Notes under the pieces: model-generated
What the model saw: only the letters and a program-made list of their open reading frames with translations
The model's database searches: none
What the model was told of the DNA's origin: nothing
Position numbers and translations under genes: made by a program
Part shown: piece after piece, positions 21,549 to 60,541 of the stretch
How the letters are laid out: every line of letters starts with the position of its first letter
Position numbering within the stretch: the stretch's first letter is position 1
Origin: Gammaproteobacteria bacterium
GTDB taxonomy: Bacteria; Pseudomonadota; Gammaproteobacteria; Steroidobacterales; Steroidobacteraceae
Direction: 5' to 3'
Length of the DNA: 64,000 bases
Assembly (NCBI GenBank): GCA_003132025.1
Contig: PKWJ01000018.1
Location: 353,341-417,340, forward strand

Positions 21549-21564
21549 AAGGTTTGCGCGGCAA

Positions 21565-30930: not shown

Positions 30931-30951
30931 CACTGACCTTAAGGCAGCAAG

Positions 30952-31365: not shown

Positions 31366-31491
31366 ATGAGCGGATTCAAGAAATAATGCCTGTGCGTCCA
31401 TGGGCCAGCCAACTGTTAGTGGTGTACACGTTTCGAATTAGAAGCGCGTAACCAGGCCAGCGCCATCGGCATTGGCCTACAGCACCCCTCC

Positions 31492-32156: not shown

Positions 32157-33134
32157 TCAGGCGTGGGTTTCCATGCCCTGATGTTGTTGTCCGTAGATAG
32201 CGAGTTTGTTATACAACGTTTTCAAGCTGCATCCCAGCGTCTTGGCCGCGCGATTCTTGTTGCCAGCCCAGTGCGCCAGCGTCGCCTCGATCAGCCACTG
32301 TTCCGCCTCCGCCAGCGATGATCCGATCGGCACGCAAATGCCATCGGTATCCTCGTGCGACACCACATCCGTGCTGGCTGCCGCATGCAGATTCATGGGC
32401 TGCAGCTTCAGCTCGTGCTCACACAGAATGTAGGCGCGCTCGACCGCATTCTTCAGCTCCCGGACGTTGCCGGGCCAGCGATATTCACGCAAGGTTTGCC
32501 TGGCGCCGCTGCTGAACACCTTCGCCGTGTCGTTGCGGGCGTTGATCTCGTTCAGGAAGTGCTCCGCGAGCAGCACCACATCATCGCCGCGCTCGCGCAG
32601 TGGCGCCAGCGCGATCGGAAATACAGCCAGCCGATACAGCAGGTCCTCGCGCAAGCTGCCGTCGCGCACCGCCTGTACCGGCGAGCGATTGGTCGCCGCC
32701 ACTACGCGAACGTCGGTCCTGATCTCCTGCGTGCCGCCGACCCGGAAGAAGCATCGTGTCTCGAGGAATCGCAGCAGCCGCGTCTGCATGTCGGCGCTCA
32801 TCTCGGTGACCTCATCGAGGAACAGCGTGCCGCCTGAGGCGCGCTCGACCATGCCGGCGTGACTGCGTCCCGCGCCGGTGAAACTGCCGCGTTCAAATCC
32901 GAACAGTTCCGATTCGATCAGCGTCGGCGGCAAAGCGCCGCAGTTGATGCCGAGAAACGGTCCCGAGCCGCGCGCGCTGCGCGCATGAATCGCCTGTGCA
33001 ACCAGTTCCTTGCCGGAGCCGCTCTCGCCGGATATCAGCACTGTGGCGTCGGTGGGCGCTACCTTGTCCACCAGGTCGCGGATGGCCTGCATAGCGGCCG
33101 AGCCACCAACCATCCAATTTGCCATGTCATTCAT
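32157..33134 (-). CDS. Sigma-54-dependent activator without receiver domain
   Basis: A 325-residue enhancer-binding protein of AAA+ type. It has Walker A GESGSGKE (residues 35-42), the sigma-54 contact loop GSFTGA instead of GAFTGA, Walker B GGTLFLDEV, and the Arg finger block REDLLYRLAVFPI. The C-terminal Fis-type HTH is NRAAKTLGCSLKTLYNKL. There is no receiver, PAS or GAF domain before the AAA+ part; the protein starts directly at MVGGSAAMQAIRDLV. Its input must therefore come from another protein or from its level. It lies next to the mttB homologue, a plausible but unproven target. Confidence 0.86.
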   Translation of the reverse strand: MNDMANWMVGGSAAMQAIRDLVDKVAPTDATVLISGESGSGKELVAQAIHARSARGSGPFLGINCGALPPTLIESELFGFERGSFTGAGRSHAGMVERASGGTLFLDEVTEMSADMQTRLLRFLETRCFFRVGGTQEIRTDVRVVAATNRSPVQAVRDGSLREDLLYRLAVFPIALAPLRERGDDVVLLAEHFLNEINARNDTAKVFSSGARQTLREYRWPGNVRELKNAVERAYILCEHELKLQPMNLHAAASTDVVSHEDTDGICVPIGSSLAEAEQWLIEATLAHWAGNKNRAAKTLGCSLKTLYNKLAIYGQQHQGMETHA

Positions 33135-33472: not shown

Positions 33473-35041
33473 ATGGATGACCAGCAAGCGCTATCGGCAC
33501 GTCGCAACCGCGGCGGCGGCCGCGAGGCCAAGCGCGCCGCGCGGGCGGCACGCTCAGCCGTCACCGTTCCGTACATCACGCGTAACCTGCCGTACTACGA
33601 AGTCCTCGACGAGCAGGGCCTGATCACCATCGAAAACAATGCCGACACGATCCTGGAGGAGATCGGCATCGACTTCCGTGACGACGCCGAGTCGCTCACG
33701 CTGTGGAAGGCGGCCGGGGCCCACGTCAAGGGCGAGCGCGTGCACTTCCCGCGTGGCCTGTGCCGCTCGCTGATCCGCAACACCGCACCGCGCGAGTTCG
33801 TGCAATACGCCCGCAATCCAGCACACAACGTGCCCATCGGCGGCAAGCACACCGTGTTTGCCCCGGCCTACGGCTCGCCGTTCATCCGCAATCTGGACGA
33901 GGGCCGTCGCTACGCGCGCATCGAGGATTTCCGGAACTTCGTCAAGCTCGCCTACATGGCGCCGTCGCTGCATCACTCGGGCGGCACCATCTGCGAGCCG
34001 GTGGATCTGCCGGTCAACAAACGGCATTTCGATATGGTCTACAGCCACATCAAGTACAGCGACAAGCCGTTCATGGGCTCGGTCACGCACCCCGAACGCG
34101 CTGCGGATACGGTCGAGATGGCGAAGATCCTGTTCGGTCCGGATTTCATCGACCCGGTCACCGGGCGCCCCCGCACCGTGCTGGTCAGTCTCATCAATGC
34201 CAACTCGCCGATGACGTTCGACTCGACCATGCTCGGCGCCCTGAAGGTCTACGCGCGTGCCAACCAGGCCACGATCGTGACGCCCTTCATCCTTGCCGGG
34301 GCGATGTCACCGGTGACGGTGGCCGGCACGGCAGCGCAGACGCTGGCCGAAGCGCTGGCCGGCATGGCGCTGACGCAGCTGGTGAATCCCGGCGCGCCGG
34401 TGATCTTCGGCAGCTTTGCCTCCTCGATCTCGATGCAATCCGGCGCGCCCACGTTCGGCACCCCCGAGCCGGCACTGGTGCTGTATATCATGGCCGCGCT
34501 GGCGCGCCGCCTCGGGGTACCGTTCCGTTCCGGCGGCAGCCTGTGCGCATCCAAGATCGCCGATGCGCAAGCGGCATTCGAATCGGCCAACACGCTGCTG
34601 CCGACCTGTCTTGCGGGAGTCAATTTCGTGCTGCACGTCGCGGGCTGGCTCGAGGGCGGCCTGGCCATGGGCTACGAGAAATTCGTCATGGACGTCGATC
34701 AGGCGGGCATGATGCAGACCTTCCTTAAGGGCGTGGACATGTCCGACAACGGCCAGGCCATGGATGCAATCCGCGAGGTCGGCCCCGGCAAGCATTTCCT
34801 CGGCTGTGCGCACACCCAGGCAAACTTTGAGACCGCGTTCTACCGCTCGGCGCTGGCCGACAACAACAGCTACGAGCAGTGGGAAGCCGAGGGTGCGAGC
34901 GACATGGCCAAGCGCGCTAATGTCCTGTGGAAAAAGCAGCTCGCGGAGTACCAGGCGCCGCCGCTGGATGCCGCGATCGACGAGGCGCTGCTCGATTTCA
35001 TGCAGCGCCGCAAGGCCTCGTTTCCGGACTCGAACGTGTGA
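33473..35041 (+). CDS. Non-pyrrolysine MttB-family methyltransferase (first copy)
   Basis: Trimethylamine methyltransferase-family enzyme (COG5598), 522 residues. In this family a methyl group is moved from a quaternary or tertiary amine to a corrinoid protein. The sequence reads through without an in-frame TAG, so it lacks pyrrolysine and belongs to the MtgB-like (glycine betaine) side of the family. Start at 33473 is supported by AGGAGG upstream. The N-terminus has a basic RNRGGGREAKRAARAARS segment, also seen in the second copy at 62491. It is convergent with the RACE gene of the corrinoid operon. Substrate may be glycine betaine, but carnitine, proline betaine and others are also possible. 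Confidence 0.88.
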   Translation: MDDQQALSARRNRGGGREAKRAARAARSAVTVPYITRNLPYYEVLDEQGLITIENNADTILEEIGIDFRDDAESLTLWKAAGAHVKGERVHFPRGLCRSLIRNTAPREFVQYARNPAHNVPIGGKHTVFAPAYGSPFIRNLDEGRRYARIEDFRNFVKLAYMAPSLHHSGGTICEPVDLPVNKRHFDMVYSHIKYSDKPFMGSVTHPERAADTVEMAKILFGPDFIDPVTGRPRTVLVSLINANSPMTFDSTMLGALKVYARANQATIVTPFILAGAMSPVTVAGTAAQTLAEALAGMALTQLVNPGAPVIFGSFASSISMQSGAPTFGTPEPALVLYIMAALARRLGVPFRSGGSLCASKIADAQAAFESANTLLPTCLAGVNFVLHVAGWLEGGLAMGYEKFVMDVDQAGMMQTFLKGVDMSDNGQAMDAIREVGPGKHFLGCAHTQANFETAFYRSALADNNSYEQWEAEGASDMAKRANVLWKKQLAEYQAPPLDAAIDEALLDFMQRRKASFPDSNV

Positions 35042-35064
35042 CTGCGGATGCGTCGCGCAGCGCG

Positions 35065-37080
35065 CTAACCCTGATGTATCACGCGGCGGTTGCGCCGCTC
35101 GCGGCCATCGCTCTGCACTACCGCTTTGGGCGCGGGCAGCTGCACCGCCGAGCGCAGATGGGGATAGGGCGCGGTCTTGTGCGGAATGGCCATGGCCTCG
35201 ACGAAATGAGTCTGAAAGCGCGGTTCCAATGCGGTCTCTATTTTCTCCACCTGCCGCACGATGGCTTCGATGATCGCGCGCGAGCGCGAGTCGAGCAGCG
35301 CGATGCGGGCGCCGGTGCCCGCGGCATTGCCGGCCGAGGCGACCTGCGACAGCTCGCAGTCGGGAATCATGCCGAGCACCATGGCGTACTTGACGTCGAT
35401 GTGGCTGCCGAACGCGCCGGCCAGCCGGATCCGATCCACCTGATCCACCCCCAGCCGCTCCATCAGTAATCGGATGCCGGCGTACAGCGCAGCCTTCGCC
35501 AACTGGATCGCACGCACGTCGTTTTGGGTGATCGATAGCGGGCGCTCACCCAACACCAGCTGGTAGGCAAACGTCCTGCCGTTGGCCACCAGCCGCGGGC
35601 TGCTGGCCGCCAGCGAGCCGTCGATAACGCCGTCCTGGTTGATGACACCGGCCAGGTAGAGTTCGGCGATCAGCTCGATGATGCCCGAGCCGCACACGCC
35701 GGTGACGCCGGTAACCCCAACCGCCTGAGCGAATGCCGGATCGTCCGACCACAGCTCAGAGCCGATTACCCGATAGCGCGGCTCGAGCGTGGTGCGATCG
35801 ATGCGCACCCGCTCGATTGCGCCCGGGGCGGCGCGCTGGCCGCAACTGATCTGCGCGCCCTCGAATGCCGGTCCGGTCGGGCTGGAGCAAGCCACAAGGC
35901 GCGCACGGTTGCCAAGCACGATTTCCGCGTTGGTGCCGACATCCACCAGCAACGTCAGCGGCTCGGCAAGGTCCGGCCGTTCCGCCAGGATCATGCCGGC
36001 GGCGTCGGCGCCCACATGACCGGCGATGCACGGCAGCACGTAGATGCGGGCGTTGGGATTCACGCTGATATCGAGCTCGGCCGCGGTGACGGTGACGGCG
36101 CTGTCCACCGCGAGCGCGAACGGCGCGCCGCCCAGTTCCACCGGGTCGAGGCCCAGCACCAGGTGGTGCATGATCGGGTTGCCCACCAGTGTCATCTCAA
36201 GGATCGCGTCCGGCGCGATGCCGGCCGCGCGCGCCACGTCCGCCGCCAGCTCGCTCAGCGCACCCCTCACGGCCGCGGTCATCTGCGCGGCGCCGCCCGG
36301 GTTCATCATCGCGTACGACACCCGGCTCATCAGGTCCTCGCCGAAGCGGATCTGTGGATTCATGATGCCGGCGGCCGCCACGATGTCGCCGCTGGTCAGG
36401 TCGCACAGGTGCGCGGCGATGGTGGTGGAGCCGACGTCCACGGCCAGCCCGTAGACCTTCTCGTGCAGGCCCGGCCACACCGACACGATCCGGGAGCGGT
36501 CGTGGATCGCGACCGTGACCTTCCATTTGCCGCTCCTAAGCGCCGCCTGCAGCCCCTGCAGCACTTTCAGGTCGCATACCAGCGCGCCCAGCTGCCACTC
36601 GCGCGCCAGCGCGTCGGACAGTCGCTTCAAGTCGCCCGACGGGTCATGCATGTCCGGCTCGGCGACCTCGACGTAGTGCAGCGTGATGAGCGGATAGAGT
36701 TCGATGTCATGCGCCTCGGCGGCCTTGCGCACTACCTGCCGGTGCACCTGGCTGCTGGCCGGGACGTCCACCACGACGTCACCCTGCAGGCGCGCCTGGC
36801 AGGACAGCCGGCGTCCGGCAGCGAGCAGCTTGCGATCGGCGAGCTTCTGTTCGGCTCCCGACATCGGCGACAGGTTGCCGGCCGCGGAGCGCACGTTGTG
36901 CTTGGCGAACTCGCCCTCTGCGATCAGCACCTGGCAGCGGGTGCACATGGCGCGCCCGCCACACACCGAATCAATGTCCACGCCCAGGGCGCGCGCGGCC
37001 GACAGTATCGGGGTACCGAGCTCGAAGCGGCCGCGTTTGCCCGACGGCGTGAAGACTACCAGCGCATCGGTCGCGGCCAC
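35065..37080 (-). CDS. Reductive activator of corrinoid proteins (RACE; RamA-like, DUF4445)
   Basis: Restores the Co(I) state of a corrinoid protein by ATP-dependent reduction. The 671-residue protein has an N-terminal [2Fe-2S] ferredoxin domain with Cys40, Cys46, Cys49 and Cys94 (VCGGRAMCTRC and LSCQA). The C-terminal ASKHA-type domain with DUF4445 carries GLAVDVGSTTIAAHL, LLVDVGTNAEIVLG and RLAGAFGSHID. It starts with GTG. It is the last gene of the operon starting with the corrinoid protein at 41183 and is convergent with the mttB homologue. RACE proteins are otherwise found next to methyltransferase systems. Confidence 0.88.
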   Translation of the reverse strand: MAATDALVVFTPSGKRGRFELGTPILSAARALGVDIDSVCGGRAMCTRCQVLIAEGEFAKHNVRSAAGNLSPMSGAEQKLADRKLLAAGRRLSCQARLQGDVVVDVPASSQVHRQVVRKAAEAHDIELYPLITLHYVEVAEPDMHDPSGDLKRLSDALAREWQLGALVCDLKVLQGLQAALRSGKWKVTVAIHDRSRIVSVWPGLHEKVYGLAVDVGSTTIAAHLCDLTSGDIVAAAGIMNPQIRFGEDLMSRVSYAMMNPGGAAQMTAAVRGALSELAADVARAAGIAPDAILEMTLVGNPIMHHLVLGLDPVELGGAPFALAVDSAVTVTAAELDISVNPNARIYVLPCIAGHVGADAAGMILAERPDLAEPLTLLVDVGTNAEIVLGNRARLVACSSPTGPAFEGAQISCGQRAAPGAIERVRIDRTTLEPRYRVIGSELWSDDPAFAQAVGVTGVTGVCGSGIIELIAELYLAGVINQDGVIDGSLAASSPRLVANGRTFAYQLVLGERPLSITQNDVRAIQLAKAALYAGIRLLMERLGVDQVDRIRLAGAFGSHIDVKYAMVLGMIPDCELSQVASAGNAAGTGARIALLDSRSRAIIEAIVRQVEKIETALEPRFQTHFVEAMAIPHKTAPYPHLRSAVQLPAPKAVVQSDGRERRNRRVIHQG

Positions 37081-37089
37081 GTGGACGCC

Positions 37090-38013
37090 CTAGGCGGCCG
37101 GCGTTGGGCGACGGCGGTGACCGCCCTCGCGCCGGCCGCGACCGGCCTCGCCGTCGGCGCCGGCCGGCGGCGGTTCGCGGAATTTCCTGATCCAGCGCGC
37201 GCAGTCCGGATCATGGCCCATCATGACGTCGGCACCGAGCACCGCCTCAACCACCTCCGGGTGCAGCGGATTGGTAATCGCGGAGGTCATCCCCGAGCCG
37301 ATCGCCATGGTCAGGAACGCCGCGTTGATGCCGTTACGGCGCGGCAGCCCGAAGCTGATGTTCGAGGCACCGCAGGTGGTATTGACCTTGAGTTCGGTCT
37401 TCAGGCGATGCACCAGGCGCATCACCTGCACCGCGGCGCGATTGATGGCACCGATCGGCATCACCAGCGGATCGACCACGATGTCGGATGCCGGAATGCC
37501 GTGATCGAGCGCGCGATGCACGATGCGCTTGGCAACCTCGAAGCGCACGTCGGGATCTTCGGAGATGCCGGTCTCATCGTTGGAGATCGCGACTACGGCG
37601 GCGCCATATTTTTTGATCAGCGGCAGCACACTCTCCAGCCGGTCCTCTTCGCCGGTGACCGAATTCACCAGCGCCTTGCCCTTGTAGACTGCCAGCCCCG
37701 CCTCCAGCGCCGCGACGATCGAGGAATCGATCGACAGCGGCACGTCGGTGATCGACTGCACCAGCCGGATGGCGCGGGCGAGGATCGCCGGCTCATCCGC
37801 CAGCGGGATGCCGGCGTTGACATCGAGCATGTGGGCGCCGGCTTCCACCTGGGCGCGGGCGTCCATCTCCACCCGGCTGAAGTCACCGGCCGACATTTCG
37901 GCCGCGAGTATCTTGCGTCCGGTCGGATTGATGCGTTCGCCGATGATGACGAACGGGCGATCGAAGCCGATCACCACCTCCTTGGTCGCGGAACTGAGAA
38001 CGGTGTCGGTCAT
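37090..38013 (-). CDS. Pterin-binding methyltransferase (MtgA/AcsE-like, DHPS fold)
   Basis: Transfers a methyl group between a corrinoid protein and tetrahydrofolate. The 307-residue TIM-barrel protein has the pterin-binding block FVIIGERINPTGRK, then DARAQVEAGAHMLDVNAG, PLSIDSS and NSVTGEE, all typical of the methyltetrahydrofolate methyltransferase (DHPS-like) family. The C-terminal tail (RRREGG and basic residues) is outside the usual family end. The ATG overlaps the stop of the metF gene by four bases, and AGGAA sits nearby. It is the natural second methyltransferase for the MttB-corrinoid pair. Confidence 0.87.
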   Translation of the reverse strand: MTDTVLSSATKEVVIGFDRPFVIIGERINPTGRKILAAEMSAGDFSRVEMDARAQVEAGAHMLDVNAGIPLADEPAILARAIRLVQSITDVPLSIDSSIVAALEAGLAVYKGKALVNSVTGEEDRLESVLPLIKKYGAAVVAISNDETGISEDPDVRFEVAKRIVHRALDHGIPASDIVVDPLVMPIGAINRAAVQVMRLVHRLKTELKVNTTCGASNISFGLPRRNGINAAFLTMAIGSGMTSAITNPLHPEVVEAVLGADVMMGHDPDCARWIRKFREPPPAGADGEAGRGRREGGHRRRPTPAA

Positions 38014-39026
38014 GATGCTTTCCTGTCGGCTGAATTCTGGTCGCGTCCCGGATGCCACGGCGTTCGTCCATCGAGCACGCCGGACCTGGTGATGATCTCG
38101 GCCACCGCCTCCTCCTGCCGGTACGCCATCACATGCACGCCGTGGACACCGCGCATGCTGCGGATCTCCTGGATCAGTTCGATACAGATGTTGCGCCCTT
38201 CGCGCGCCGGATCCTGCGCGCCCGCCAGACGGTCGACGATCGCATCGGGGATATGAACCCCGGGCACGTGCCGACGCATCCACTCGGCCGCCTTGGCGCT
38301 CCTGATCGGGCCCACGCCGATCAGCAGGAATACGCGGTCGAGCAGCCCCAGGTCCTCGACCCCGCGCATGAAAGCGCGCAGTCGCGGCAGGTCGTACACG
38401 TACTGCGTCTGGATGAACTGCGCCCCGGCCGCCACCTTCTTCGCCAGCCGCAGTGCGCGGTGTTCGAGCGGCGGCACCATCGGGTTCTCGCCGGCACCGA
38501 ACAATACCCGCGGCGAGAAGCTGAGCTTGCGCCCGCTCTGGAAATGATGCTCATCGCGCAGCGTGCGGCCGATTTCCAGCAGCGATATCGAATCCAGATC
38601 GAACACCGGCCTGGCCTGCGGGTGATCGCCCACCTGCACGCCATCGCCCGTCAGGCACAGCATGTTGCATACGCCCATGGCGGCGCCGCCGAGGATGTCG
38701 CCCTGAATGGCAATCCGGTTGCGGTCGCGGCAGGAGATCTGCATCACCGGGGCGTAGCCGACGCGCGTCAGCAGTGCGCATACCGCCAGGCTCGACATGT
38801 GACAGTTGGCTCCGGAGCCATCGGTGGCGTTGATCGCGTCGACGTAGCCATCGAGCATGCGCACGCGCTGGTACACCTCCTGCGGGTCGGCGGAATCCGG
38901 CGGTGCCAGTTCGGTCGTCACGGCAAAGGCGCCGGCGCGCAGCACGCGCTCGAAGCGGCCCGGGGATACGTGACCGGGCAGGATCGGTAATGGATAGCCT
39001 GGCACCGGCTCATCCTCGAACCTCAT
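38010..39026 (-). CDS. metF: Methylenetetrahydrofolate reductase (MetF-like)
   Basis: Flavin enzyme interconverting methyl- and methylene-THF; 338 residues. Visible blocks include AVTTELAPPDSADPQEVY, the central MSSLAVCALLTRVGYAPVMQ and AAGAQFIQTQYVYDLPRLRA. The start at MRFEDEPVPGY is used, because its ATG overlaps the stop of the metV-like gene as ATGA. Running towards methylene-THF in a demethylation pathway is inference from the genes around it. The C-terminal Cys-rich part of some MetF proteins is encoded separately as metV in this operon. Confidence 0.88.
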   Translation of the reverse strand: MRFEDEPVPGYPLPILPGHVSPGRFERVLRAGAFAVTTELAPPDSADPQEVYQRVRMLDGYVDAINATDGSGANCHMSSLAVCALLTRVGYAPVMQISCRDRNRIAIQGDILGGAAMGVCNMLCLTGDGVQVGDHPQARPVFDLDSISLLEIGRTLRDEHHFQSGRKLSFSPRVLFGAGENPMVPPLEHRALRLAKKVAAGAQFIQTQYVYDLPRLRAFMRGVEDLGLLDRVFLLIGVGPIRSAKAAEWMRRHVPGVHIPDAIVDRLAGAQDPAREGRNICIELIQEIRSMRGVHGVHVMAYRQEEAVAEIITRSGVLDGRTPWHPGRDQNSADRKAS

Positions 39027-39493
39027 GGCGCAGGCCGCGCTGTCGATCCGGTGCGCTCGCGCACCAACCGCAGCCATGAGGAATGGCCCTCGAGGCGCCG
39101 GTCGACCGGAGCCTGGATCTCGCGGATGCGCTCGATACCGCCCGGAATGCGCTCGGCGCCGGCGAATGCCAGCAGCCACACGCAGCGCATCTGGGAATTG
39201 ACCTCGCAGTAGCCGTCGGCGCGCACGCCGCCACAGGGGCCGTTGCGCAGACTCTTCGGGCAGTTCATCGGGCATGACATGCCGGTGGAGCTCAGCACGC
39301 ACTGCCCGCACATCTTGCAGTCGAACAGCAGGCCCTTGACACCGCGCTCGACGACGACGAACGGGCGTTCCAGGCGCTGATAGCCGATCGCACTGAATAA
39401 CGGGGCGAGGCGCATTAGCAAGCGTTCGAACATGCCATAGAACCGATCTATGCCGCGTGCATGGCGCACCGACCACAGACGTGCGCGGTACAT
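39023..39493 (-). CDS. metV: MetV-like zinc/iron-sulfur subunit of MetF (MTHFR_C, PF12225)
   Basis: A 156-residue protein with the Cys-rich block CKMCGQCVLSSTGMSCPMNC followed by NGPCGGVRADGYCEV. This is the PF12225 signature, known as MetV, which pairs with MetF in acetogens. It lies directly before metF and overlaps it, supporting a MetFV complex. The N-terminal ~50 residues have no recognisable motif. Its ATG overlaps the stop of the upstream PF13769 gene by one base (TGATG). Which electron donor or acceptor it uses is not visible here. Confidence 0.85.
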   Translation of the reverse strand: MYRARLWSVRHARGIDRFYGMFERLLMRLAPLFSAIGYQRLERPFVVVERGVKGLLFDCKMCGQCVLSSTGMSCPMNCPKSLRNGPCGGVRADGYCEVNSQMRCVWLLAFAGAERIPGGIERIREIQAPVDRRLEGHSSWLRLVRERTGSTARPAP

Positions 39494-39837
39494 CAGCGCG
39501 CTCCGGAGCTATCGGCCGCAGCGCCCTCGCCCGTCAGGCGATCGTCGACGCCCTTGGCGCGGATCATGCGTTCCAGATCCGCATCGCTGTAGCGGGCTTC
39601 TAGCACCGCGGCCGCGGCATCGGCCACCGCCTTGAGGTCATCGCCGCACAGGCGCGGCGGGCTGCGCTTCCAGTCGGCAAGGTAGGCGTCGGAGCTGCCC
39701 TTGCCGGCCCGCATCGCCGCGCGGTCGACCGCCTCCTGAAAGCGTTGCGACAGCTGCACCTTCGCCGTCTCGCGCCCACGCTTGACGATCACCTGGGCCG
39801 GAATGTCGCGCCACGAAATGATGATCAGCTGCGCCAC
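39493..39837 (-). CDS. Small PF13769-family protein (named virulence factor), function unknown
   Basis: A 114-residue protein starting MAQLIIISWRDIPAQVIVKR and resembling the PF13769 family. The family name, virulence factor, has no clear basis in function. In other bacteria it appears beside corrinoid methyl-transfer genes, and here it lies in the operon between DUF1638 and metV. It has a basic N-terminal half and no membrane segment. No catalytic motif is obvious; it may be an accessory of the pathway. Confidence 0.72.
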   Translation of the reverse strand: MAQLIIISWRDIPAQVIVKRGRETAKVQLSQRFQEAVDRAAMRAGKGSSDAYLADWKRSPPRLCGDDLKAVADAAAAVLEARYSDADLERMIRAKGVDDRLTGEGAAADSSGAR

Positions 39838-39849
39838 GCGGCTATGCTC

Positions 39850-40470
39850 TCAAGGCCCCGGGTGCGCGCCCGGCCCGCGCACCACGCGCGCCAGGCTGCG
39901 CGCCAGATCGCCGTAGCCGGTGGCGCGCTGCTCGTAGGCGAGCCCGAGCCGCGCGGCGATGGCGCGCGCTTGGCGCTCCAGCTGCGCATCCGCGACCTGC
40001 GCCAGATAGACCACGCGGCGGTAATGGCGGAAATATTCACCGGCGAGCTGTGGATGCCGGTCGATCCCGAGGCCGCCGATCACCAGCCGCTCGAAATGCC
40101 GCACCAGGAAATCGGTCAGATAGAAGGTGCCGGGCTCGGCATCCGCCAACGCCGCAAACCCGGCCGAGGTGGCGAACAATTCATAACAATGCGCACCCGG
40201 CAGCCGCTCGACACCCTCCTCGGCCAGCATCCGGTCGAGCGCCCCGCCGGTGCCGCAGTCGGCGTAGGCCACGAAGATACGCGTATAGCGCTCTCGCGCC
40301 TCGCGAATCGCCGCGCATACCGCCGCGGGAATCTTTTCCGGCCGGTTGTGCAGCTCCGGCGGCAGGCAGGTCACATCGAGCGCCGACCAGCCGCTGGCGC
40401 GCTTTACTGCCGTGATCTCGCGCGCCAGCGCCCCGCACGCGATCACCAGTACCCGGTCCGAAGACTGCAT
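39850..40470 (-). CDS. DUF1638 (PF07796) protein, function unknown
   Basis: A 206-residue soluble protein with the DUF1638 features VLVIACGALAREI, LPPELHNRPEKIPAAV and FVAYADCGTGGALDRML. Cys and His residues in these blocks (CG, HNRPEKIP, DCGTGG) may bind a metal or ligand. Members are found in genomes with methylamine or methanol corrinoid systems, and here it sits directly after the corrinoid protein gene. Its role may be in handling or delivering the corrinoid; this is inference. The stop is 12 bases before the PF13769 gene start. Confidence 0.78.
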   Translation of the reverse strand: MQSSDRVLVIACGALAREITAVKRASGWSALDVTCLPPELHNRPEKIPAAVCAAIREARERYTRIFVAYADCGTGGALDRMLAEEGVERLPGAHCYELFATSAGFAALADAEPGTFYLTDFLVRHFERLVIGGLGIDRHPQLAGEYFRHYRRVVYLAQVADAQLERQARAIAARLGLAYEQRATGYGDLARSLARVVRGPGAHPGP

Positions 40471-40484
40471 GGCAGTGCAACGCT

Positions 40485-41183
40485 TCAGCGCGCGGCCCGG
40501 CGCGCAGCCACCATCGATTTCGCGGTTTCCACCGCGATCGCGGCATCGCGGCAGTAGGCGTCGGCGCCGATGGCTTTGCCGAATTCCTCATTCAGCGGCG
40601 CGCCCCCGACCAGCACGATGTACTTGTCGCGGATGCCCTTTTCCTTGAGCGTATCGATGACCACTTTCATGTAAGGCATGGTGGTGGTCAGTAGCGCCGA
40701 CAGTCCCAGGATGTCGGGCTGGTGCTGCTCGATCGCAGCCAGGTACTTTTCCACCGGATTGTTGATGCCCAGATCGATGACTTCGAAGCCGGCGCCCTCG
40801 AGCATCATCGATACCAGGTTCTTGCCGATGTCGTGGATGTCGCCCTTGACGGTGCCGATGACGATCTTGCCGATCGGCTCGACTCCGGTCTCCGCCAGCA
40901 GCGGCCGCAGGATCTCCATGCCGCCTTTCATCGAGTTCGCCGCCAGCAGCACCTCGGGCACGAACAGGATGCCATCGCGGAAATCGATACCGACGATGCG
41001 CATGCCTTCGACCAGCGCCTCGTTCAGGACTTTCTCGGGCGACCAGCCGCGCCCAAGAAAGATCCGGGTCGCCTGCTCGACCTCCTCTTTGAGGCCGTTG
41101 TAGAGATCGTCGTGAACCTGTTCGGTCAGTTCCTGATCGTCCAGGCTGTCGAGATCGAATTCCTCATTCTGGCCATCGGCCAT
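40485..41183 (-). CDS. Corrinoid (B12-binding) methyl-carrier protein, MttC/MtgC-like
   Basis: A 232-residue methyl carrier that receives methyl groups from an MttB-type enzyme. It has an N-terminal helical cap domain (residues 1-100) and a Rossmann B12-binding domain with GTVKGDIHDIGKNL. Asp115, His117 and Gly120 make up DxHxxG, with His117 the likely lower ligand of cobalt. ILGLSALLTTTMPYM and VLVGGAPLNEEF complete the fold. The start MADGQNEEFD is preceded by GGGGAG. It is the first gene of the operon, and the mttB homologue of this locus sits apart, on the plus strand beyond RACE. Confidence 0.9.
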   Translation of the reverse strand: MADGQNEEFDLDSLDDQELTEQVHDDLYNGLKEEVEQATRIFLGRGWSPEKVLNEALVEGMRIVGIDFRDGILFVPEVLLAANSMKGGMEILRPLLAETGVEPIGKIVIGTVKGDIHDIGKNLVSMMLEGAGFEVIDLGINNPVEKYLAAIEQHQPDILGLSALLTTTMPYMKVVIDTLKEKGIRDKYIVLVGGAPLNEEFGKAIGADAYCRDAAIAVETAKSMVAARRAAR

Positions 41184-42341: not shown

Positions 42342-42362
42342 GAGCATCGCGCTCACCGCCGT

Positions 42363-49134: not shown

Positions 49135-51549
49135 CTATGCGCGCAGCCGCAGCCCCTGCGGATCGTACAGCGGCTGCAGCCGCACCGTGGCGGTGCGTAT
49201 CTCGCCCAGAATATCGATCTCGAAGCGTTCGCCGTCGCACGCCAGGCCGGCGGGCACATAGCCGGCGGCAAGGCTCTTGGCGACGCAATGCCCGAACGCG
49301 CCCGAGGTCACGTAGCCCACGGCCGCACCGTCCTTGATAATCGACTCGTAGCCGATCACGTCGGCATCGCCAGCCGCGATCTCCATGACCACGAAGCGGC
49401 GCGCCGGCCCTGCCGCACGCTCGGCGCTGGCGGCCGCGCGCCCGGTGAAATCGGCCTTGCCGAAGTCGATGAAGCGGTCGAGCCCGGTTTCGGCTGCGGT
49501 GTAGTCGGGGCGAAAGTCCTTGTTGAACGAGCCATAGGCCTTCTCCAGCCGCAGCGACGACAGCGCACGGCCGCCGAAATGCTTGAGGCCGAGCGAGCGC
49601 CCCGCATCCCACAGCTCATCATAGAGCGTGGCGAAATAGTCCGGCGTGGTCCAGATCTCGTAGCCGAGTTCGCCGGTGAAGCCGGCACGCGTCAGGAGCG
49701 CCGGCGCCAGTCCCACCGCGGTTTGCCTGAGCTGGAACAGCTTGAACGCCGCTGCCGACAGATCCGCGCGCACCAGCGGTTGCAGCAGTGCGCGCGCCTG
49801 CGGACCTGCGATCGACACGCCGCACAGGCTCGAGGCCGCCGAGCGTACGAAGACATCGGCCGGGGGTTCGCTGGTCCAGAACCAGCGCAGGTGGAATTCC
49901 TCGGCGAAGCCGGAGCCCACGATCATGAAGCGGTCGTCGGCCAGGCAGGCAATCGTCAGGTCGCCGATGATGCGGCCGGCGGGGCTGAGCATCGGCGCCA
50001 GGGCGAGTCGTCCGGGTACGGGTATGCGGCTGGCAAACACCCGATCAAGCCAGGCGCGCGCGCCGCGGCCGGTGACCTCGTATTTTCCATAGTTCGTGGT
50101 TTCGTACAGGCCCACGGTAGCGCGCACCGCCTGGCATTCGGCGCGCACGTGGGCAAAGGCCTCCGAGCGCCGATAGGTCGGGGTCTCGGTCGGCGGCACA
50201 CCGCTCGGTGCGAACCAGAGCGCATGCTCGAGTCCGAAGTTCGCCCCCATGACCGCGCCGGCGGCCCGCAACCGATCGTAGATCGGCGACCGGCGCACCG
50301 GACGGGCGGCGGCCAACTCCTCGTTCGGATAGGCCAGGCGGAAGCGGCGCGAGTAATTCTCCGGCACCTTGAGCGACGTGTACCTGGGCGTGGCAAAGGC
50401 ACCAAAGCGCGCCACATCCATCGACAGAATGTCCTGGCCGGGGTCGTTGTGCGCCATCCAGCGCGACAGCACCAGGCCGATGCCGCCGCCCTGGCTGAAA
50501 CCCGCCATCACGGCGCAGGCTACCCAGTAGTTGGTGAGGCCGCGCACCGGACCGACCAGCGGATTACCGTCGGGCGCAAAGGTGAACGGACCGTTGATTG
50601 CCTTCCTGATGCCAACGCGCCCGAGCGCCGGAAAATGCTGGAACCCGACCTCGAAATACGGCGCCAGGCGCTCGAAATCATCCGGCAGCAGCTGCATCGA
50701 AAAGTCATCCGGAGTTTTCACCGCCGACCAGATCACCCCCTGCGGTTCGTAGGTTCCGATCAACGCACCGCCGCGCTCCTGGCGCATGTAGATCTCGCCC
50801 GCATAGTCGGTGGTGTTGACGATCTCGTGATCGCGACCGGCCAGCTCCGGAATGTCTTCGGTGATCAGGTAGTGGTGCTCCATCGCCAGCACCGGCAGCT
50901 CGATGCCGACCATGTGGCCGACCTCGCGCGCCCACAAGCCGGCGCAGTTGACCACATGCTCGGCGTGCACCGTGCCCTTGTCGGTCACCACGTCCCACGA
51001 GCCGTCGGCGCGCTGCGCCAGCGAGCGCACACGCGTGAAGCGCTCCACCGAGGCTCCGAGCTGACGCGCCGCCTTGACGTAGGCGTGCGTGGTTCCGGAC
51101 GGATCGCAATGCCCGCCGTCCGCGCGCCACAGCGCGCCGATGAAGTGGCTGGTATCGATCAGCGGATTGAGGTGCCGGGCCTGCTCGAGCGAGATCATTT
51201 CGGTTTCCATGCCGAGATAGCGCGCGCGCGAACATATGAGTTTCAGGCTATCGAGCTCGCCGGCGGTCGCCGCCAGCATCAGGCCGCCGTTGGGATGCAG
51301 GCCGCAGGATTGGCCCGACAGTGCCTCGATCTCGCGATACAGATCGATGGTGTATTTCTGCAGCCGCGAGATATTGGCTTCGCCGTTGAAGGTGTGCATG
51401 CCGCCCGCGGCGTGCCAGGTCGAACCGGCCGCCAGCTCGCTCTGCTCGATCAGCAGCACGTCGGTCCAGCCGATCTTCGCCAGGTGATAGAGCGTACTGG
51501 CGCCGACCACGCCGCCGCCGATGATCACCACGCGTGCGCTGCCCTTCAT
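49135..51549 (-). CDS. Dimethylglycine dehydrogenase-like flavoprotein
   Basis: Demethylates N,N-dimethylglycine to sarcosine; the one-carbon unit goes to THF as methylene-THF. The 804-residue protein has an N-terminal FAD domain with VVIIGGGVVGASTLYHLAKI and the STWHAAGGMH block whose His matches the residue that carries covalent FAD in the family. The C-terminal half is a GcvT-type folate-binding domain (VGLYETTNYGKYEVTGRGA to the ARTATVR end). The ATG overlaps the soxG stop as ATGA. The choice of dimethylglycine over sarcosine rests on the sarcosine oxidase genes next to it. Confidence 0.85.
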   Translation of the reverse strand: MKGSARVVIIGGGVVGASTLYHLAKIGWTDVLLIEQSELAAGSTWHAAGGMHTFNGEANISRLQKYTIDLYREIEALSGQSCGLHPNGGLMLAATAGELDSLKLICSRARYLGMETEMISLEQARHLNPLIDTSHFIGALWRADGGHCDPSGTTHAYVKAARQLGASVERFTRVRSLAQRADGSWDVVTDKGTVHAEHVVNCAGLWAREVGHMVGIELPVLAMEHHYLITEDIPELAGRDHEIVNTTDYAGEIYMRQERGGALIGTYEPQGVIWSAVKTPDDFSMQLLPDDFERLAPYFEVGFQHFPALGRVGIRKAINGPFTFAPDGNPLVGPVRGLTNYWVACAVMAGFSQGGGIGLVLSRWMAHNDPGQDILSMDVARFGAFATPRYTSLKVPENYSRRFRLAYPNEELAAARPVRRSPIYDRLRAAGAVMGANFGLEHALWFAPSGVPPTETPTYRRSEAFAHVRAECQAVRATVGLYETTNYGKYEVTGRGARAWLDRVFASRIPVPGRLALAPMLSPAGRIIGDLTIACLADDRFMIVGSGFAEEFHLRWFWTSEPPADVFVRSAASSLCGVSIAGPQARALLQPLVRADLSAAAFKLFQLRQTAVGLAPALLTRAGFTGELGYEIWTTPDYFATLYDELWDAGRSLGLKHFGGRALSSLRLEKAYGSFNKDFRPDYTAAETGLDRFIDFGKADFTGRAAASAERAAGPARRFVVMEIAAGDADVIGYESIIKDGAAVGYVTSGAFGHCVAKSLAAGYVPAGLACDGERFEIDILGEIRTATVRLQPLYDPQGLRLRA

Positions 51550-56806: not shown

Positions 56807-57718
56807 ATGGCCAACATTCTTAAGTCGCTGTGTGTGGCCGCGGTGCTGGCGCTCGGCGCGTCGCCGCAGTTGCAGGCGGCGGTGATCGTGTCTTCGAAGC
56901 TGTCGAGCGAGTCGGCCATGATCGGCCACATGATCCGCCTGCTGCTGAATGCGGATGGGATCGCAACGATTGATCGCATGACGCTCGGCGCGACTCCGGT
57001 CGTGCGCAAAGCGCTGCTGTCCGGCGAGATCGACATCTACGTCGAGTACACCGGCAACGCCGGTTTCTTTTTCAATGTCGCATCCGATCCCGCCTGGAAG
57101 GATCTGCAGCAGGGTTATCAGCTCGGTTCGCGGCTCGATTACGCCGCCAACCACATCGTGTGGCTCACGCCCGCCAATGCCAGCAACTCCTGGGCGCTGG
57201 CGGTGCGCCGCGACGTCGCCCGTGCCAATAACCTGAAGACAATGAGTGATTTCGGCCGCTGGGTGGCCGGCGGCGGCAAGGTGGTGCTGGCCTGTTCGGC
57301 CGAGTTCGCCAATGCCGGTACGCTGCGCTCACTCGAGAAGACTTATGGCTTTACGATGCGATCCGCGCAGCTGATCGTGCTCGCCGGCGGGGAGACCTCG
57401 GCGACCATCGGCGCGGCGGCCGCGCGCACCAACGGCACCAATACCGCCATGGTGTACGGCACCGACGGCGGCATCGATGCGGCGAACCTGCAGGTCATGG
57501 AGGATGATCGCCACGACCAGCCGATCTATGCGCCGGTGCCGATCATCCGCGAGTCGGTGCTGGCGGCAAACCCGCAGATTGCGCAGCTGGTCAAGCCGCT
57601 GATGCAGAGCTTCACGCGCGAGACGCTGCAGCGCCTGAATGAGCGGGTGCAGATCGACGGCGAATCGGCGCAGTCGGTGGCCGAAGACTATCTGCGCACG
57701 CGCGGCCTGCTGAAATGA
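56807..57718 (+). CDS. Quaternary-amine binding protein, OsmF/YehZ/OpuCC-like
   Basis: Periplasmic binding protein of the OpuAC type (303 residues). The signal peptide is MANILKSLCVAAVLALGA, then VIVSSKLSSESAMIGHMIRL and the EIDIYVEYTGNAG block, typical for glycine-betaine/choline binding proteins of the YehZ/OpuC group. The WALAVRRDVARANNLKTMSD segment also fits. First gene of the operon binding protein-permease-ATPase-permease. The likely ligand is a betaine, choline or a related quaternary amine. Confidence 0.88.
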   Translation: MANILKSLCVAAVLALGASPQLQAAVIVSSKLSSESAMIGHMIRLLLNADGIATIDRMTLGATPVVRKALLSGEIDIYVEYTGNAGFFFNVASDPAWKDLQQGYQLGSRLDYAANHIVWLTPANASNSWALAVRRDVARANNLKTMSDFGRWVAGGGKVVLACSAEFANAGTLRSLEKTYGFTMRSAQLIVLAGGETSATIGAAAARTNGTNTAMVYGTDGGIDAANLQVMEDDRHDQPIYAPVPIIRESVLAANPQIAQLVKPLMQSFTRETLQRLNERVQIDGESAQSVAEDYLRTRGLLK

Positions 57719-58869
57719 CGCAGCATCGGATCGATCCGCTCGGTGCGCTGGTCACGGCCGTGGGCGCCGCGGCGCTGCTGTGGCTGCCGTTCGTGGTGCT
57801 GAAGCCGAACCGCATCCTGCCGGGCGATGCGCGCAGTCTGATCGCGGTGCTGCCGCCATCCACAACGATCGCCTGTCTGGCGTGCCTGATCCTGGTGGCG
57901 CTGGCGGCACTGGCCATGTCCAAGCCCCCGGTGCGGCTGGCCGCGGCCCTGCTCGGCGTGATCGTGGTGGCAGCGGCGATCTCTACGGCGGGCGATGTGC
58001 TGACACCGCCCGGCAACCGGGTGGTGCGCGTTGCGCCCGGCTCGGGTTTCTGGGTGCTGCTGGTGGCGGTCGGCCTGATGGCTACCGACGCCATCACACG
58101 CCTGCGGCCGCGGCCCGCCGCACGGGTACTGATGCTGGCGCTGTTCGCCGCGGTGACTTTGTTCGCACTCGCGCACGGCACCTTCGACCATCTGTCGGTG
58201 ATGCGCGAATACGCGGTCAACGCCGGTCGCTTCGCGCACGAGGTGCGCCAGCACGTGTGGCTGGCGCTTGGCTCGCTGGGCACCGCGGTCATCGTGGCGC
58301 TGCCGCTGGGCATCCTGTGCCACCGCGTACCACGGCTGCGCGGCGGCGTTCTGGGCACGCTCAACGTGATCCAGACGATCCCTGCGATCGCGCTGTTCGG
58401 TATCCTGATGGCGCCGCTCGGAGCCCTGGCAGCGGCCGTGCCGCTGGCAGCGCAGCTCGGAATCCGCGGCATCGGCGCCGCACCCGCGGTCGTGGCGCTG
58501 TTCCTGTATTCGCTGCTGCCGGTGGTGGCCAATACGGTCGCCGGCCTCAAACGGGTGTCGCCCGCCGCCGTGGAAGCCGCACGCGGCATGGGCATGACCA
58601 GCTGGCAGGTCCTGACTGGAGTCGAACTGTCGCTGGCGCTGCCGACGATCCTCACCGGTATCCGTATCGTGCTGGTGCAGAACATCGGCCTCGTGACTGT
58701 CGCCGCGCTGATCGGCGGCGGTGGCCTCGGCGTGTTCGTGTTTCAGGGCATCGGCCAGACGGCGATCGACCTGGTGCTGCTCGGAGCGATTCCCACGGTG
58801 GCGCTGGCCTTCTCGGCCGCGGTGCTGCTGGATGCGGTGGTGGAAACGATGAATCGGGCGCGGCAATGA
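57715..58869 (+). CDS. Quaternary-amine ABC permease, YehY-like
   Basis: Permease of 384 residues, with extra hydrophobic N-terminal helices (about 130 residues) before the core permease domain (VWLALGSLGTAVIVALPLGI). The EAA-type loop AARGMGMTSWQVLTGVELSL is present. Its ATG overlaps the stop of the binding-protein gene as ATGA, and its stop overlaps the ATPase start as ATGA. Extended N-terminal helices are known in YehY-type permeases. Works with the YehW-like permease. Confidence 0.88.
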   Translation: MTQHRIDPLGALVTAVGAAALLWLPFVVLKPNRILPGDARSLIAVLPPSTTIACLACLILVALAALAMSKPPVRLAAALLGVIVVAAAISTAGDVLTPPGNRVVRVAPGSGFWVLLVAVGLMATDAITRLRPRPAARVLMLALFAAVTLFALAHGTFDHLSVMREYAVNAGRFAHEVRQHVWLALGSLGTAVIVALPLGILCHRVPRLRGGVLGTLNVIQTIPAIALFGILMAPLGALAAAVPLAAQLGIRGIGAAPAVVALFLYSLLPVVANTVAGLKRVSPAAVEAARGMGMTSWQVLTGVELSLALPTILTGIRIVLVQNIGLVTVAALIGGGGLGVFVFQGIGQTAIDLVLLGAIPTVALAFSAAVLLDAVVETMNRARQ

Positions 58870-59801
58870 TTACCGTCGACAAGCTCAGCAAGCGCTACGG
58901 CACCACCACGGTGGTCGATCAGGCCTCGATGGTGATCGAACGCAACTCCATCACGGTGATCGTAGGCACTTCCGGCTCCGGCAAGTCGACGCTGCTGCGC
59001 ATGATCAATCGCCTGGTGGAGCCGAGCAGCGGCCGGGTGCTGATCGACGGCAACGACACCGCGCGCGAACCCGCCCATCTGCTGCGGCGCCGGATCGGCT
59101 ATGCGATCCAGGGCCACGGGCTGTTCCCACACCGCACCGTGGCCGAAAACATCGCCACCGTGCCGCGCCTGCTCGGCTGGGATCAGGCCCGGGTGCGCGC
59201 CCGGGTCGACGAACTGCTGGGCGTGTTCCAGCTCGATCCGGCGGAATTTGCCGGAAAATTTCCACATCAGCTATCCGGGGGGCAGCAGCAACGCGTCGGC
59301 GTGGCGCGAGCGCTGGCCGCCGAACCGGCGGTGCTGCTGATGGACGAACCGTTCGGAGCGCTCGACCCGATCATCCGCGCCAAGGCGCAGGACGATCTGC
59401 TCGACATCCAGCGACGTTTCGCGACCACGATCGTGCTGGTGACGCACGATATGGATGAAGCGTTCCGCCTCGGCAGTCGCGTCGCGGTGATGAGCCAGGG
59501 CCGGGTACTGCAGTACGACCGCCCGGCGGCGCTGCTCACGCGCCCGGCGGACCCGTTCGTGTCGCGCATGACCGGCAGCGCCGATCGCGCCATGAAGCTG
59601 CTGTCGCTGACCACGGCAGGTGAAGTGGCGGTGCCGGGAAGCTCCAACGGCCCGACAGTGGCGGCATCCGCCTCGCTGCGCGACGCGCTGTCGGAACTGG
59701 TGTGGCGCGGCGCCGAATCCGCCGCCGTGGTCGACGCCAACGGCATGCCGTGCGGGTGCCTGACGGTGGCCGCGATTCTTGCGCACGGACGGCCGGGTTG
59801 A
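58866..59801 (+). CDS. Quaternary-amine ABC ATPase, YehX/OpuCA-like
   Basis: ATPase of 311 residues with Walker A GTSGSGKSTLLRM, signature LSGGQQQRVGVARAL and Walker B VLLMDEPFGALDP. The MINRLVEPSSGRVLIDG block is close to glycine-betaine importers. A short C-terminal CBS-like region (EVAVPGS, ASLRDALSELVWRGAESAAV) follows the ATPase core. Its start overlaps the upstream permease stop, and its stop overlaps the downstream permease start as TGATG. The CBS part may sense ionic strength, as in OpuA, but is short. Confidence 0.89.
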   Translation: MITVDKLSKRYGTTTVVDQASMVIERNSITVIVGTSGSGKSTLLRMINRLVEPSSGRVLIDGNDTAREPAHLLRRRIGYAIQGHGLFPHRTVAENIATVPRLLGWDQARVRARVDELLGVFQLDPAEFAGKFPHQLSGGQQQRVGVARALAAEPAVLLMDEPFGALDPIIRAKAQDDLLDIQRRFATTIVLVTHDMDEAFRLGSRVAVMSQGRVLQYDRPAALLTRPADPFVSRMTGSADRAMKLLSLTTAGEVAVPGSSNGPTVAASASLRDALSELVWRGAESAAVVDANGMPCGCLTVAAILAHGRPG

Positions 59802-60541
59802 TGCCGGGCAGCGCTGCGCTGCTGCGCCTGGCGGCGCTGGCGCTGCTGGTGGCATTCCTGCTGACACCGTACAGCTTCGCCCCGTTGTTCGAACCGCTGA
59901 CGCAGTACGGAGCGCCGGCGATCTACGATCAGGGCAATCTGCTGACACTGGCGCTGGCGCAGATCGGGACCGTGCTGTGCGCAACGGCGGCCAGTACGCT
60001 GGTGGCCGTCGGTCTCGGCATCGCGGTGACGCGCCCCAGCGGCGCGCAGTTCCTGCCCCTGTCGCGCACGCTGGTCAATATCGGACAGACCTTCCCGCCG
60101 GTGGCGGTGCTGGCGATCGCGGTGCCACTGGTTGGGTTTGGCCTGAAGCCAACCCTGATCGCACTGTTCTGTTACGGCCTGCTGCCGATCTTCGAGAACA
60201 CCATCGGCGGACTGCGCGCCTGTCCGCCGGCGGTGCTGGAGGCCGCCAGCGGCATGGGGATGAGCCCCGGCCAGCGCCTGCTTTCGATTGAGCTCCCGCT
60301 TGCTATGCCGTTGATTCTAGAGGGAATTAGAATTTCACTGGTCATCAACGTGGGTACCGCTGCGATCGGCTCCACGGTTGGCGCCAAGGGCCTGGGCGAG
60401 GTAATCATCGCCGGACTTCTGTCAAATAACGCCGCGTTCATTTTGCAGGGCGGCCTGCTGACCGGACTGATCGCGATCCTGCTTTATGACACGATGGTAG
60501 CGGTCGAACGTCGTCTGTTCGGCAACGTGCGCATCGAATAA
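59801..60541 (+). CDS. Quaternary-amine ABC permease, YehW-like
   Basis: Second permease of the system (246 residues), with six predicted helices. EAA-type loop: AASGMGMSPGQRLLSIELPL. Start at ATG overlapping the ATPase stop by one base. The four-gene set binding protein-YehY-YehX-YehW resembles the E. coli yehZYXW osmoprotectant system by content, though the order differs. It is followed by a gap with a MerR-type operator before the desaturase gene. Confidence 0.89.
   Translation: MPGSAALLRLAALALLVAFLLTPYSFAPLFEPLTQYGAPAIYDQGNLLTLALAQIGTVLCATAASTLVAVGLGIAVTRPSGAQFLPLSRTLVNIGQTFPPVAVLAIAVPLVGFGLKPTLIALFCYGLLPIFENTIGGLRACPPAVLEAASGMGMSPGQRLLSIELPLAMPLILEGIRISLVINVGTAAIGSTVGAKGLGEVIIAGLLSNNAAFILQGGLLTGLIAILLYDTMVAVERRLFGNVRIE

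What the first reader, a model, noticed from the sequence alone, without database searches (positions are those of the whole stretch)
33473..41183. Complete corrinoid-dependent methyl-transfer module in an apparently aerobic-type gammaproteobacterium
Seen: MttB homologue, corrinoid protein with DxHxxG, pterin methyltransferase, MetF, MetV and RACE activator lie together. All but mttB are packed on one strand, mostly with start/stop overlaps or gaps of a few to about 15 bases. Known: such sets demethylate amines in methanogens and acetogens. Inference: here the methyl group is passed to THF and oxidised to methylene-THF, so the whole C1 route from substrate to folate is encoded in 8 kb.
Basis: partly seen in the sequence, partly recalled or inferred. 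Interest (0 to 1): 0.85.

Follow-up and report, generated by a model that had tools for sequence, protein, structure and literature searches.

The report
B12-dependent glycine betaine demethylation gene cluster
This stretch carries a compact set of genes that probably strips a methyl group off glycine betaine with vitamin B12 and feeds it into folate metabolism; the pathway was recently described in air-breathing marine bacteria, so it is largely ordinary, but one small conserved part of it belongs to a protein family that databases name a virulence factor.

Summary
The cluster is real. It holds a non-pyrrolysine MttB homologue (33473-35041, +) convergent with a tight seven-gene run on the other strand (35065-41183): corrinoid protein, DUF1638, PF13769, MetV, MetF, pterin methyltransferase and RACo/RamA-like activator. 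Nearby lie a dimethylglycine-dehydrogenase-like gene, soxBDAG, an OsmF-type glycine betaine transporter and two more MttB genes. Best reading: aerobic glycine betaine to glycine demethylation, the first methyl going MttB to corrinoid to THF to methylene-THF. The kind is in print: MtgBCD of Ruegeria pomeroyi (PMC12478193, 2025), reported there for Alpha-, Gamma- and Deltaproteobacteria; RamA-like and DUF1638 reactivation in PMC5764234. So: a new member of a known kind. Here a MetF-MetH fusion is encoded separately, and B12 seems to be scavenged. The extra result: PF13769, named 'Virulence factor' by Pfam, is a constant companion. In 398 Pseudomonadota genomes it occurs in exactly the 41 that have a full-length MttB match, and it sits just upstream of MetV/MetF, a MetF-like gene or the pterin methyltransferase in nearly all loci read. 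Its function is untested. Substrate, direction and activity are inferred, not shown.

The parts
33473..35041 (+). MttB/MtgB-like methyltransferase (MttB1), no in-frame stop (not pyrrolysine)
   Evidence: PF06253 771 bits; no stops inside; PDB relatives 4yyc, 2qne, 9yce; Y, N, R, H of the proposed GB site kept
35065..37080 (-). RACo/RamA-like reductive activator of the corrinoid protein (2Fe-2S + ASKHA)
   Evidence: PF14574, PF17651, PF17650, PF00111; AcsV and RamA models below their cut-offs
37090..38013 (-). pterin methyltransferase, MtgD-like (methylcorrinoid to THF)
   Evidence: PF00809; PRK07535 362.5 bits, cut-off 259; start
38010..39026 (-). MetF (methylene-THF reductase, here thought to run as methyl-THF oxidation); alternative start 39077
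   Evidence: PF02219 116 bits; start chosen for its 4-base overlap with metV
39023..39493 (-). MetV-like Cys-rich protein (DUF5981, MTHFR C-terminal type), 8 Cys
   Evidence: PF12225 91 bits; Cys positions
39493..39837 (-). PF13769 protein (Pfam name 'Virulence factor'); conserved module component of unknown function, motif WRDxPAQ
   Evidence: PF13769 91 bits; co-distribution; neighbourhoods; model pLDDT 86, no significant fold match
39850..40470 (-). DUF1638 protein, probable partner in corrinoid reactivation; C12, H41, C72, H94, C95 among its invariant residues
   Evidence: PF07796 108 bits; invariants in 56 aligned sequences; model pLDDT 93
40485..41183 (-). corrinoid protein, MtgC-like, DIHDIG cobalamin motif (alternative start 41198)
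   Evidence: PF02607 + PF02310; best NCBIfam model MtgC 212 bits, below its cut-off 370
49135..51549 (-). dimethylglycine/sarcosine dehydrogenase-like (FAD DAO + GCV_T), probable second demethylation
   Evidence: PF01266, PF16350, PF01571, PF08669
51546..56663 (-). soxG, soxA, soxD, soxB: heterotetrameric sarcosine oxidase, probable third demethylation
   Evidence: SoxB 622.5 (cut-off 529); SoxA 1116 (1164), SoxD 104.5 (116.5), SoxG 77.5 (144) are below cut-off
56807..60541 (+). OsmF-type glycine betaine ABC transporter (binding protein, permease, ATPase; fourth gene 59801-60541 by position only)
   Evidence: NF049931 404.1 bits, cut-off 400; PF00528, PF00005
45089..49020 (-). PotD/PotF-type ABC importer, possible second substrate transporter
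   Evidence: binding protein matches PotF/PotD far below cut-offs; other subunits by sequence look and position only
62491..64000 (-). second MttB homologue (MttB2; runs to 64029, past the window)
   Evidence: PF06253 590 bits; 38% identical to MttB1
32157..33134 (-). sigma-54-type activator divergent from mttB, possible regulator (no -24/-12 site found between it and mttB)
   Evidence: PF00158, HTH_8

Best explanation
A dedicated, B12-dependent glycine betaine (or close carboxylated betaine) demethylase module of an aerobic-type proteobacterium, the MtgBCD kind. MttB1 (MtgB) moves one methyl of the betaine to Co(I) of the corrinoid protein (MtgC); MtgD moves it to THF; MetV-MetF oxidises methyl-THF to methylene-THF; RACo (with DUF1638) re-reduces corrinoid that has slipped to Co(II). 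Dimethylglycine then goes through the DAO/GCV_T enzyme and SoxBDAG to glycine. PF13769 is a conserved small subunit or assembly factor of the MtgD-MetF end. Family membership, gene order and conservation are shown here; every reaction, the substrate and the direction are inferred.
For: Families. Conserved operon: full order in 41 of 80 loci; DUF1638 is the previous recognised gene in 76 of 80, MtgD lies downstream in 59 of 62 and RACo in 59 of 61 with enough flank. Glycine betaine transporter, DMGDH-like and Sox genes close by. In Azoarcus KH32C the same operon sits beside glycine betaine ABC transporter genes, purU and an ETF-beta gene. Four of five residues proposed for GB binding in D. hafniense MtgB (Y94, N199, R309, H345; PMC6855144, passages) are kept in MttB1 and in all 35 MttB1-type proteins, this one included, whose frame covers them. 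MttB1 is closer to 2qne and 9yce, the latter named glycine betaine methyltransferase (429 and 428 bits), than to the TMA methyltransferase 7xcl (123 bits). The own genome has FTHFS, a separate MTHFR-MetH-type fusion, and a TonB receptor plus cobalamin adenosyltransferase after a cobalamin riboswitch.
Against: The fifth GB-site residue (F353) is Gly here and a nearby aliphatic residue is Trp, so another betaine is possible. The GB residues come from docking, not from a ligand-bound structure that I read. N, R and H (not Y) are also kept in MttB2 and MttB3, so they do not single out glycine betaine. NCBIfam MtgC models are below cut-off, as are the GMC and aldehyde dehydrogenase genes for the choline route. 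Only 13 of 51 loci with at least 8 kb on both sides showed Sox/DMGDH-type genes. No expression data.
Confidence: 0.8

Rival explanations
1. Same chemistry, other substrate: MttB1 demethylates another quaternary amine (for example proline betaine, carnitine or gamma-butyrobetaine).
For: MttB superfamily members in Eubacterium use these substrates (PMC12478193 Discussion); F353 to Gly and a Trp in the pocket; the PotD-type importer is the nearest ABC importer to the module.
Against: Four GB-site residues kept, OsmF-type betaine transporter and DMG/sarcosine enzymes close by; betaine transporter genes beside the Azoarcus operon.
Confidence: 0.25
2. The corrinoid/pterin pair also serves methionine synthesis (split methionine synthase), as shown in Ruegeria and Phaeobacter, and this may be its main role.
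For: MtgC/MtgD are dual-function in R. pomeroyi (PMC12478193); a separate PF02574 protein of 358 residues is present on another contig.
Against: The genome has a MTHFR-Hcy-pterin-B12 fusion, i.e. its own MetF-MetH, though its frame is cut at a contig end and crosses masked bases; mttB, metV and metF sit with the module; no mtgE in the cluster.
Confidence: 0.15
3. Pyrrolysine-dependent trimethylamine methyltransferase system.
For: PF06253 is the MttB family.
Against: No in-frame stop in any of the three MttB genes; TIGR02369 264 bits against cut-off 525.
Confidence: 0.02

Closest known systems
MtgBCD/MetF2 glycine betaine demethylase of Ruegeria pomeroyi DSS-3 (PMC12478193; abstract, Results and Discussion read)
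   Same: MttB-family MtgB, corrinoid MtgC, pterin MtgD, extra MetF, RamA-like and DUF1638 proteins; aerobic; linked to DMG and sarcosine demethylation; reported also in Gammaproteobacteria
   Different: here all in one cluster with MetV and PF13769; MetF is a recognisable MTHFR, whereas the corresponding gene in the family that I take for Rhodobacter-like is very divergent; a separate MetF-MetH is present
Split methionine synthase with RamA-like and DUF1638 reactivation proteins of Phaeobacter inhibens (PMC5764234; passages read)
   Same: corrinoid, pterin, DUF4445 and DUF1638 parts of the same families
   Different: shown to serve methionine synthesis; 'virulence factor' does not occur in its text
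Operons on Sinorhizobium meliloti Ak57 pSymB (CP090106) and Azoarcus sp. KH32C plasmid pAZKH (NC_020548)
   Same: corrinoid protein, DUF1638, 'virulence factor', MetV type, MetF, pterin methyltransferase, ASKHA protein in this order
   Different: S. meliloti has mttB divergent from the corrinoid gene and extra genes between; Azoarcus has transporter, purU and ETF-beta genes beside it
Glycine betaine methyltransferase MtgB of Desulfitobacterium hafniense (2qne; 9yce bears that name)
   Same: same family, four of five proposed GB residues
   Different: anaerobe; F353 pocket residue differs; 429 bits against 781 for 4yyc, a putative methyltransferase

Membership tests
Aerobic MtgBCD glycine betaine demethylase module | MttB-family protein without pyrrolysine | tested here: met
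Aerobic MtgBCD glycine betaine demethylase module | separate corrinoid protein with B12 cap/domain and DxHxxG | tested here: met
Aerobic MtgBCD glycine betaine demethylase module | separate pterin-binding corrinoid methyltransferase | tested here: met
Aerobic MtgBCD glycine betaine demethylase module | extra MetF besides the housekeeping one | tested here: met
   module MetF; MTHFR-MetH-type fusion on C19
Aerobic MtgBCD glycine betaine demethylase module | RamA-like and DUF1638 reactivation genes | tested here: met
Aerobic MtgBCD glycine betaine demethylase module | glycine betaine binding residues (Y94, N199, R309, H345, F353 of DhMtgB) | tested here: inconclusive
   4 of 5 kept; F353 is Gly; numbering carried over by me from the printed alignment
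Aerobic MtgBCD glycine betaine demethylase module | demethylates glycine betaine; needed for growth on it | not testable with these tools
   needs enzyme assay or knockout
Split methionine synthase (MtgCDE) | module C/D proteins needed for methionine synthesis, with a separate Hcy-binding MtgE | tested here: inconclusive
   a PF02574 protein on C59 and a MetH-type fusion on C19 are both present; need not testable
Pyrrolysine TMA methyltransferase MttB | in-frame UAG read as pyrrolysine | tested here: not met
   no stop inside any of 3 genes
Acetogen-type MetVF methylene-THF reductase | MetF with MetV partner | tested here: met
   PF02219 and PF12225 adjacent
Acetogen-type MetVF methylene-THF reductase | further electron-transfer subunit with MetVF (RnfC2 or Hdr type; recalled) | tested here: inconclusive
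   none among the eight genes of 33473-41183; the rest of the genome was not searched
PF13769 as a virulence factor | role in virulence | not testable with these tools
   distribution and neighbours in Pseudomonadota point to C1 metabolism

The most novel reading that the evidence does not exclude
PF13769 ('Virulence factor') is a so far unrecognised, obligatory part of the aerobic corrinoid methyl-transfer machine of Proteobacteria: a small protein, with no significant match to a solved fold, that works with MtgD and, where present, MetF/MetV, for example by docking them so that methyl-THF is oxidised as it forms.
Probability: 0.5. Interest if true: 0.5.

Novelty: new member of a known kind. 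Interest (0 to 1): 0.33.

Why it matters
It puts a likely complete betaine-to-glycine route, with transporters, in about 30 kb of one genome that seems to import its B12, and shows the recently described marine pathway's operon in further Beta-, Gamma- and Alphaproteobacteria. If PF13769 is part of the machine, a family whose Pfam name is 'Virulence factor' (and 3 of 8 plasmid records with a match carry that name) is misnamed in Proteobacteria, and a missing component of the pathway becomes testable by knockout in Ruegeria, Phaeobacter or Sinorhizobium.

Tried and rejected
Pyrrolysine MttB: rejected, no in-frame stop. Sigma-54 promoter for mttB: 4 matches in the window against 7.1 expected by chance, none between the activator gene and mttB. 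Rfam: only a TPP riboswitch and a tRNA in the window, no RNA element at the module. Solved-structure searches for PF13769, DUF1638 and MetV found no credible relative. Foldseek of the PF13769 model: 0 matches at E <= 0.001, best 0.41; of the DUF1638 model: 0 at E <= 0.001, best 0.0019 with TM about 0.23. I recalled that S. aureus CvfC and B. subtilis YpgR carry PF13769 and that CvfC has been tied to thyA; the search for cvfC with thyA listed 3 papers, none opened, so nothing is built on it. The B. subtilis control genome does match PF13769 and not PF06253, so outside Pseudomonadota the family is not tied to MttB. PF13769 as a MetF-only partner: weakened, since in 9 of 80 loci MtgD follows it directly. 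PF13769 as a DUF1638/MtgC partner: weakened, since in all 23 genomes of unnamed family f56 it lies at least 11 kb from DUF1638 or on another contig (coordinates) yet, in the 18 of them read, is followed by the MetF-like gene and in 16 of these 18 by MtgD within the 1.5 kb flank. Papers seen as passages that did not change the reading: PMC9842639, PMC11306105 ('virulence' not in it), PMC12542648. Other papers in the listings were not opened.

Full report
WHAT IS THERE. The interval 33473-41183 holds eight genes, not six. On the plus strand is an MttB-family gene (33473-35041). Convergent with it, on the minus strand and in transcription order, are a corrinoid protein (41183-40485), DUF1638 (40470-39850), PF13769 (39837-39493), a MetV-type protein (39493-39023), MetF (39026-38010), a pterin methyltransferase (38013-37090) and a RACo/RamA-like activator (37080-35065). 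Family assignments are (Pfam; NCBIfam); gene starts (my own gene caller). Of the NCBIfam models only PRK07535 (methyl-THF:corrinoid methyltransferase) passes its curated cut-off among module proteins; the MtgC, AcsV, RamA, MTHFR and TMA-MttB models match below theirs. The corrinoid protein has the DxHxxG motif as DIHDIG. No stop lies inside any of the three MttB genes of this genome, so pyrrolysine is not involved.

SURROUNDINGS. A second MttB (62491-64029) and, past the window, a GMC choline-dehydrogenase-like gene, an aldehyde dehydrogenase, a third MttB and a second DMGDH-like gene follow. Only SoxB of the four Sox subunits passes its NCBIfam cut-off, and the GMC and ALDH genes do not pass the choline or betaine-aldehyde dehydrogenase models, so choline as entry substrate is a guess.

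REST OF THE GENOME. The window lies in a 4.2 Mb draft of 61 contigs, 97% complete and 4.7% contaminated. It has a MTHFR-homocysteine-pterin-B12 fusion on another contig, cut at the contig end; a second PF02574 protein of 358 residues; formate-THF ligase; one cobalamin riboswitch followed by a TonB receptor and a cobalamin adenosyltransferase; and no CbiC (7 of 14 control genomes ring). From this one marker and the receptor I infer that B12 is taken up, not made. FolD, PurU, terminal oxidases and the rest of the B12 pathway were not searched.

CONSERVATION. Neighbours were found by tblastn with the window's proteins and one MetF2-like protein, so divergent genes can be missed. The full order corrinoid-DUF1638-PF13769-MetV-MetF-MtgD-RACo is seen in 41 of 80; of 57 loci with at least 4.5 kb upstream and 5.5 kb downstream, 31 have it and 48 have it or a variant with a MetF2-like gene or nothing in place of MetV-MetF. 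The preceding recognised gene is DUF1638 in 76 of 80; the next recognised gene within 1.5 kb is MetV in 54, a MetF2-like gene in 12, MetF in 1, MtgD in 9, RACo in 1, none in 3, one of these at a contig end. With enough flank, MtgD lies within 4.5 kb downstream in 59 of 62, RACo within 5 kb in 59 of 61, MtgC within 6 kb upstream in 56 of 65, MetV within 3 kb in 45 of 67. An MttB lies in the locus in 31 of 51 with at least 8 kb on both sides, Sox/DMGDH-type genes in 13 of 51. By their titles the records include Alpha-, Beta- and Gammaproteobacteria, several named only Proteobacteria, and one Thermoleophilia MAG. Annotated examples are S. meliloti pSymB and Azoarcus KH32C pAZKH, where betaine transporter genes, purU and an ETF-beta gene flank the operon.

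PF13769. In an even draw of 398 Pseudomonadota genomes, PF13769 occurs in 41 and PF06253 in 42, one of the latter a 73-position fragment; the 41 are the same genomes (Fisher 3e-55, not corrected for relatedness: 34 of the 41 belong to two families, the rest to seven others). DUF1638 is in all 41 and in 16 more; MetV is in 15 of the 41, one of them under the family cut-off, and in 4 others. In 60 relatives of the window's genome PF13769 is in 20 and PF06253 in 23; all 20 overlap, and two of the three exceptions are under 85% complete. Within the genus it is patchy, 7 of 15 genomes including this one. Of the 41 phylum matches, 30 loci with 1.5 kb flanks were read: in 10, this one included, MetV and MetF follow; in 20 a gene of about 300-340 residues follows. 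The family has an invariant W-R-D-x-P-A-Q motif in 64 aligned sequences (63 of the 80 loci and this window); its model (pLDDT 86, pTM 0.73) has no significant PDB match. No paper in the library holds 'PF13769', and combined searches for the 'virulence factor' label with DUF1638, MTHFR or corrinoid terms found none; it may be described under other words or in papers not held. 'Virulence factor' does not occur in PMC12478193 or PMC5764234.

SUBSTRATE. Against D. hafniense MtgB (2qne) MttB1 keeps Y94, N199, R309 and H345, proposed from docking to hold glycine betaine (PMC6855144, passages); F353 is Gly and a nearby aliphatic residue is Trp. I carried the published numbers to the printed chain by an offset of 19. 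The pattern YNRHWG is the same in 35 of 36 MttB1-type proteins, this one included; the other (L081, which has masked bases inside the gene) has a short frame that does not reach the last four places. MttB2 and MttB3 keep N, R, H but have His and Ser at the Y94 place and are 38 and 40% identical to MttB1. Of the other 8 MttB2/3-type proteins in the loci, 5 keep N, R, H and three distant ones in L126 and L150 have none of them. Glycine betaine is the best single guess for MttB1, other betaines for MttB2 and MttB3.

KNOWN OR NEW. PMC12478193 (outline, Results and Discussion read) shows by mutants in Ruegeria pomeroyi that MtgC and MtgD are needed for glycine betaine use and methionine synthesis, gives proteomic support for MtgB, MetF2, RamA and DUF1638, and reports MtgC homologues in Gammaproteobacteria. 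What I add is the likely full betaine-to-glycine route in one region, the separate MetF-MetH, the likely dependence on imported B12, and the PF13769 association.

WHAT IS SHOWN AND WHAT IS NOT. Shown: genes, order, conservation, co-distribution. Inferred: all reactions, the direction of MetVF, the substrate, aerobic growth, and any role of PF13769.

Noticed in passing
21451-21559 (-), genes 18478-21463: TPP riboswitch ahead of a TonB-receptor-like and a PnuT-like gene (by look): may be a thiamine uptake set.
   Followed up: no
59821-59908 (+): ARAGORN calls a tRNA-Arg at the border of two transporter genes that the Rfam scan does not report; probably a false call.
   Followed up: no
41373-45086: A 3-hydroxyisobutyrate-dehydrogenase-like gene, an enolase-superfamily sugar-acid dehydratase-like gene and an MFS transporter lie between the module and the other betaine genes; may be an unrelated sugar-acid island.
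   Followed up: partly
L004:4667-5719 (-): Reverse transcriptase (RVT_1) gene, possibly of a group II intron, between the alcohol dehydrogenase and LysR/third MttB genes.
   Followed up: partly
29566-32124: Histidine-kinase-like and two response-regulator-like genes (by look) beside the sigma-54-type activator next to mttB; their link to the module is untested.
   Followed up: no
relatives: Genomes of the same genus hold up to 8 PF06253 matches each (some are fragments), suggesting a range of methylated substrates.
   Followed up: no
L115: A Thermoleophilia MAG contig carries the corrinoid-DUF1638-PF13769-pterin methyltransferase order; horizontal transfer or binning error.
   Followed up: no
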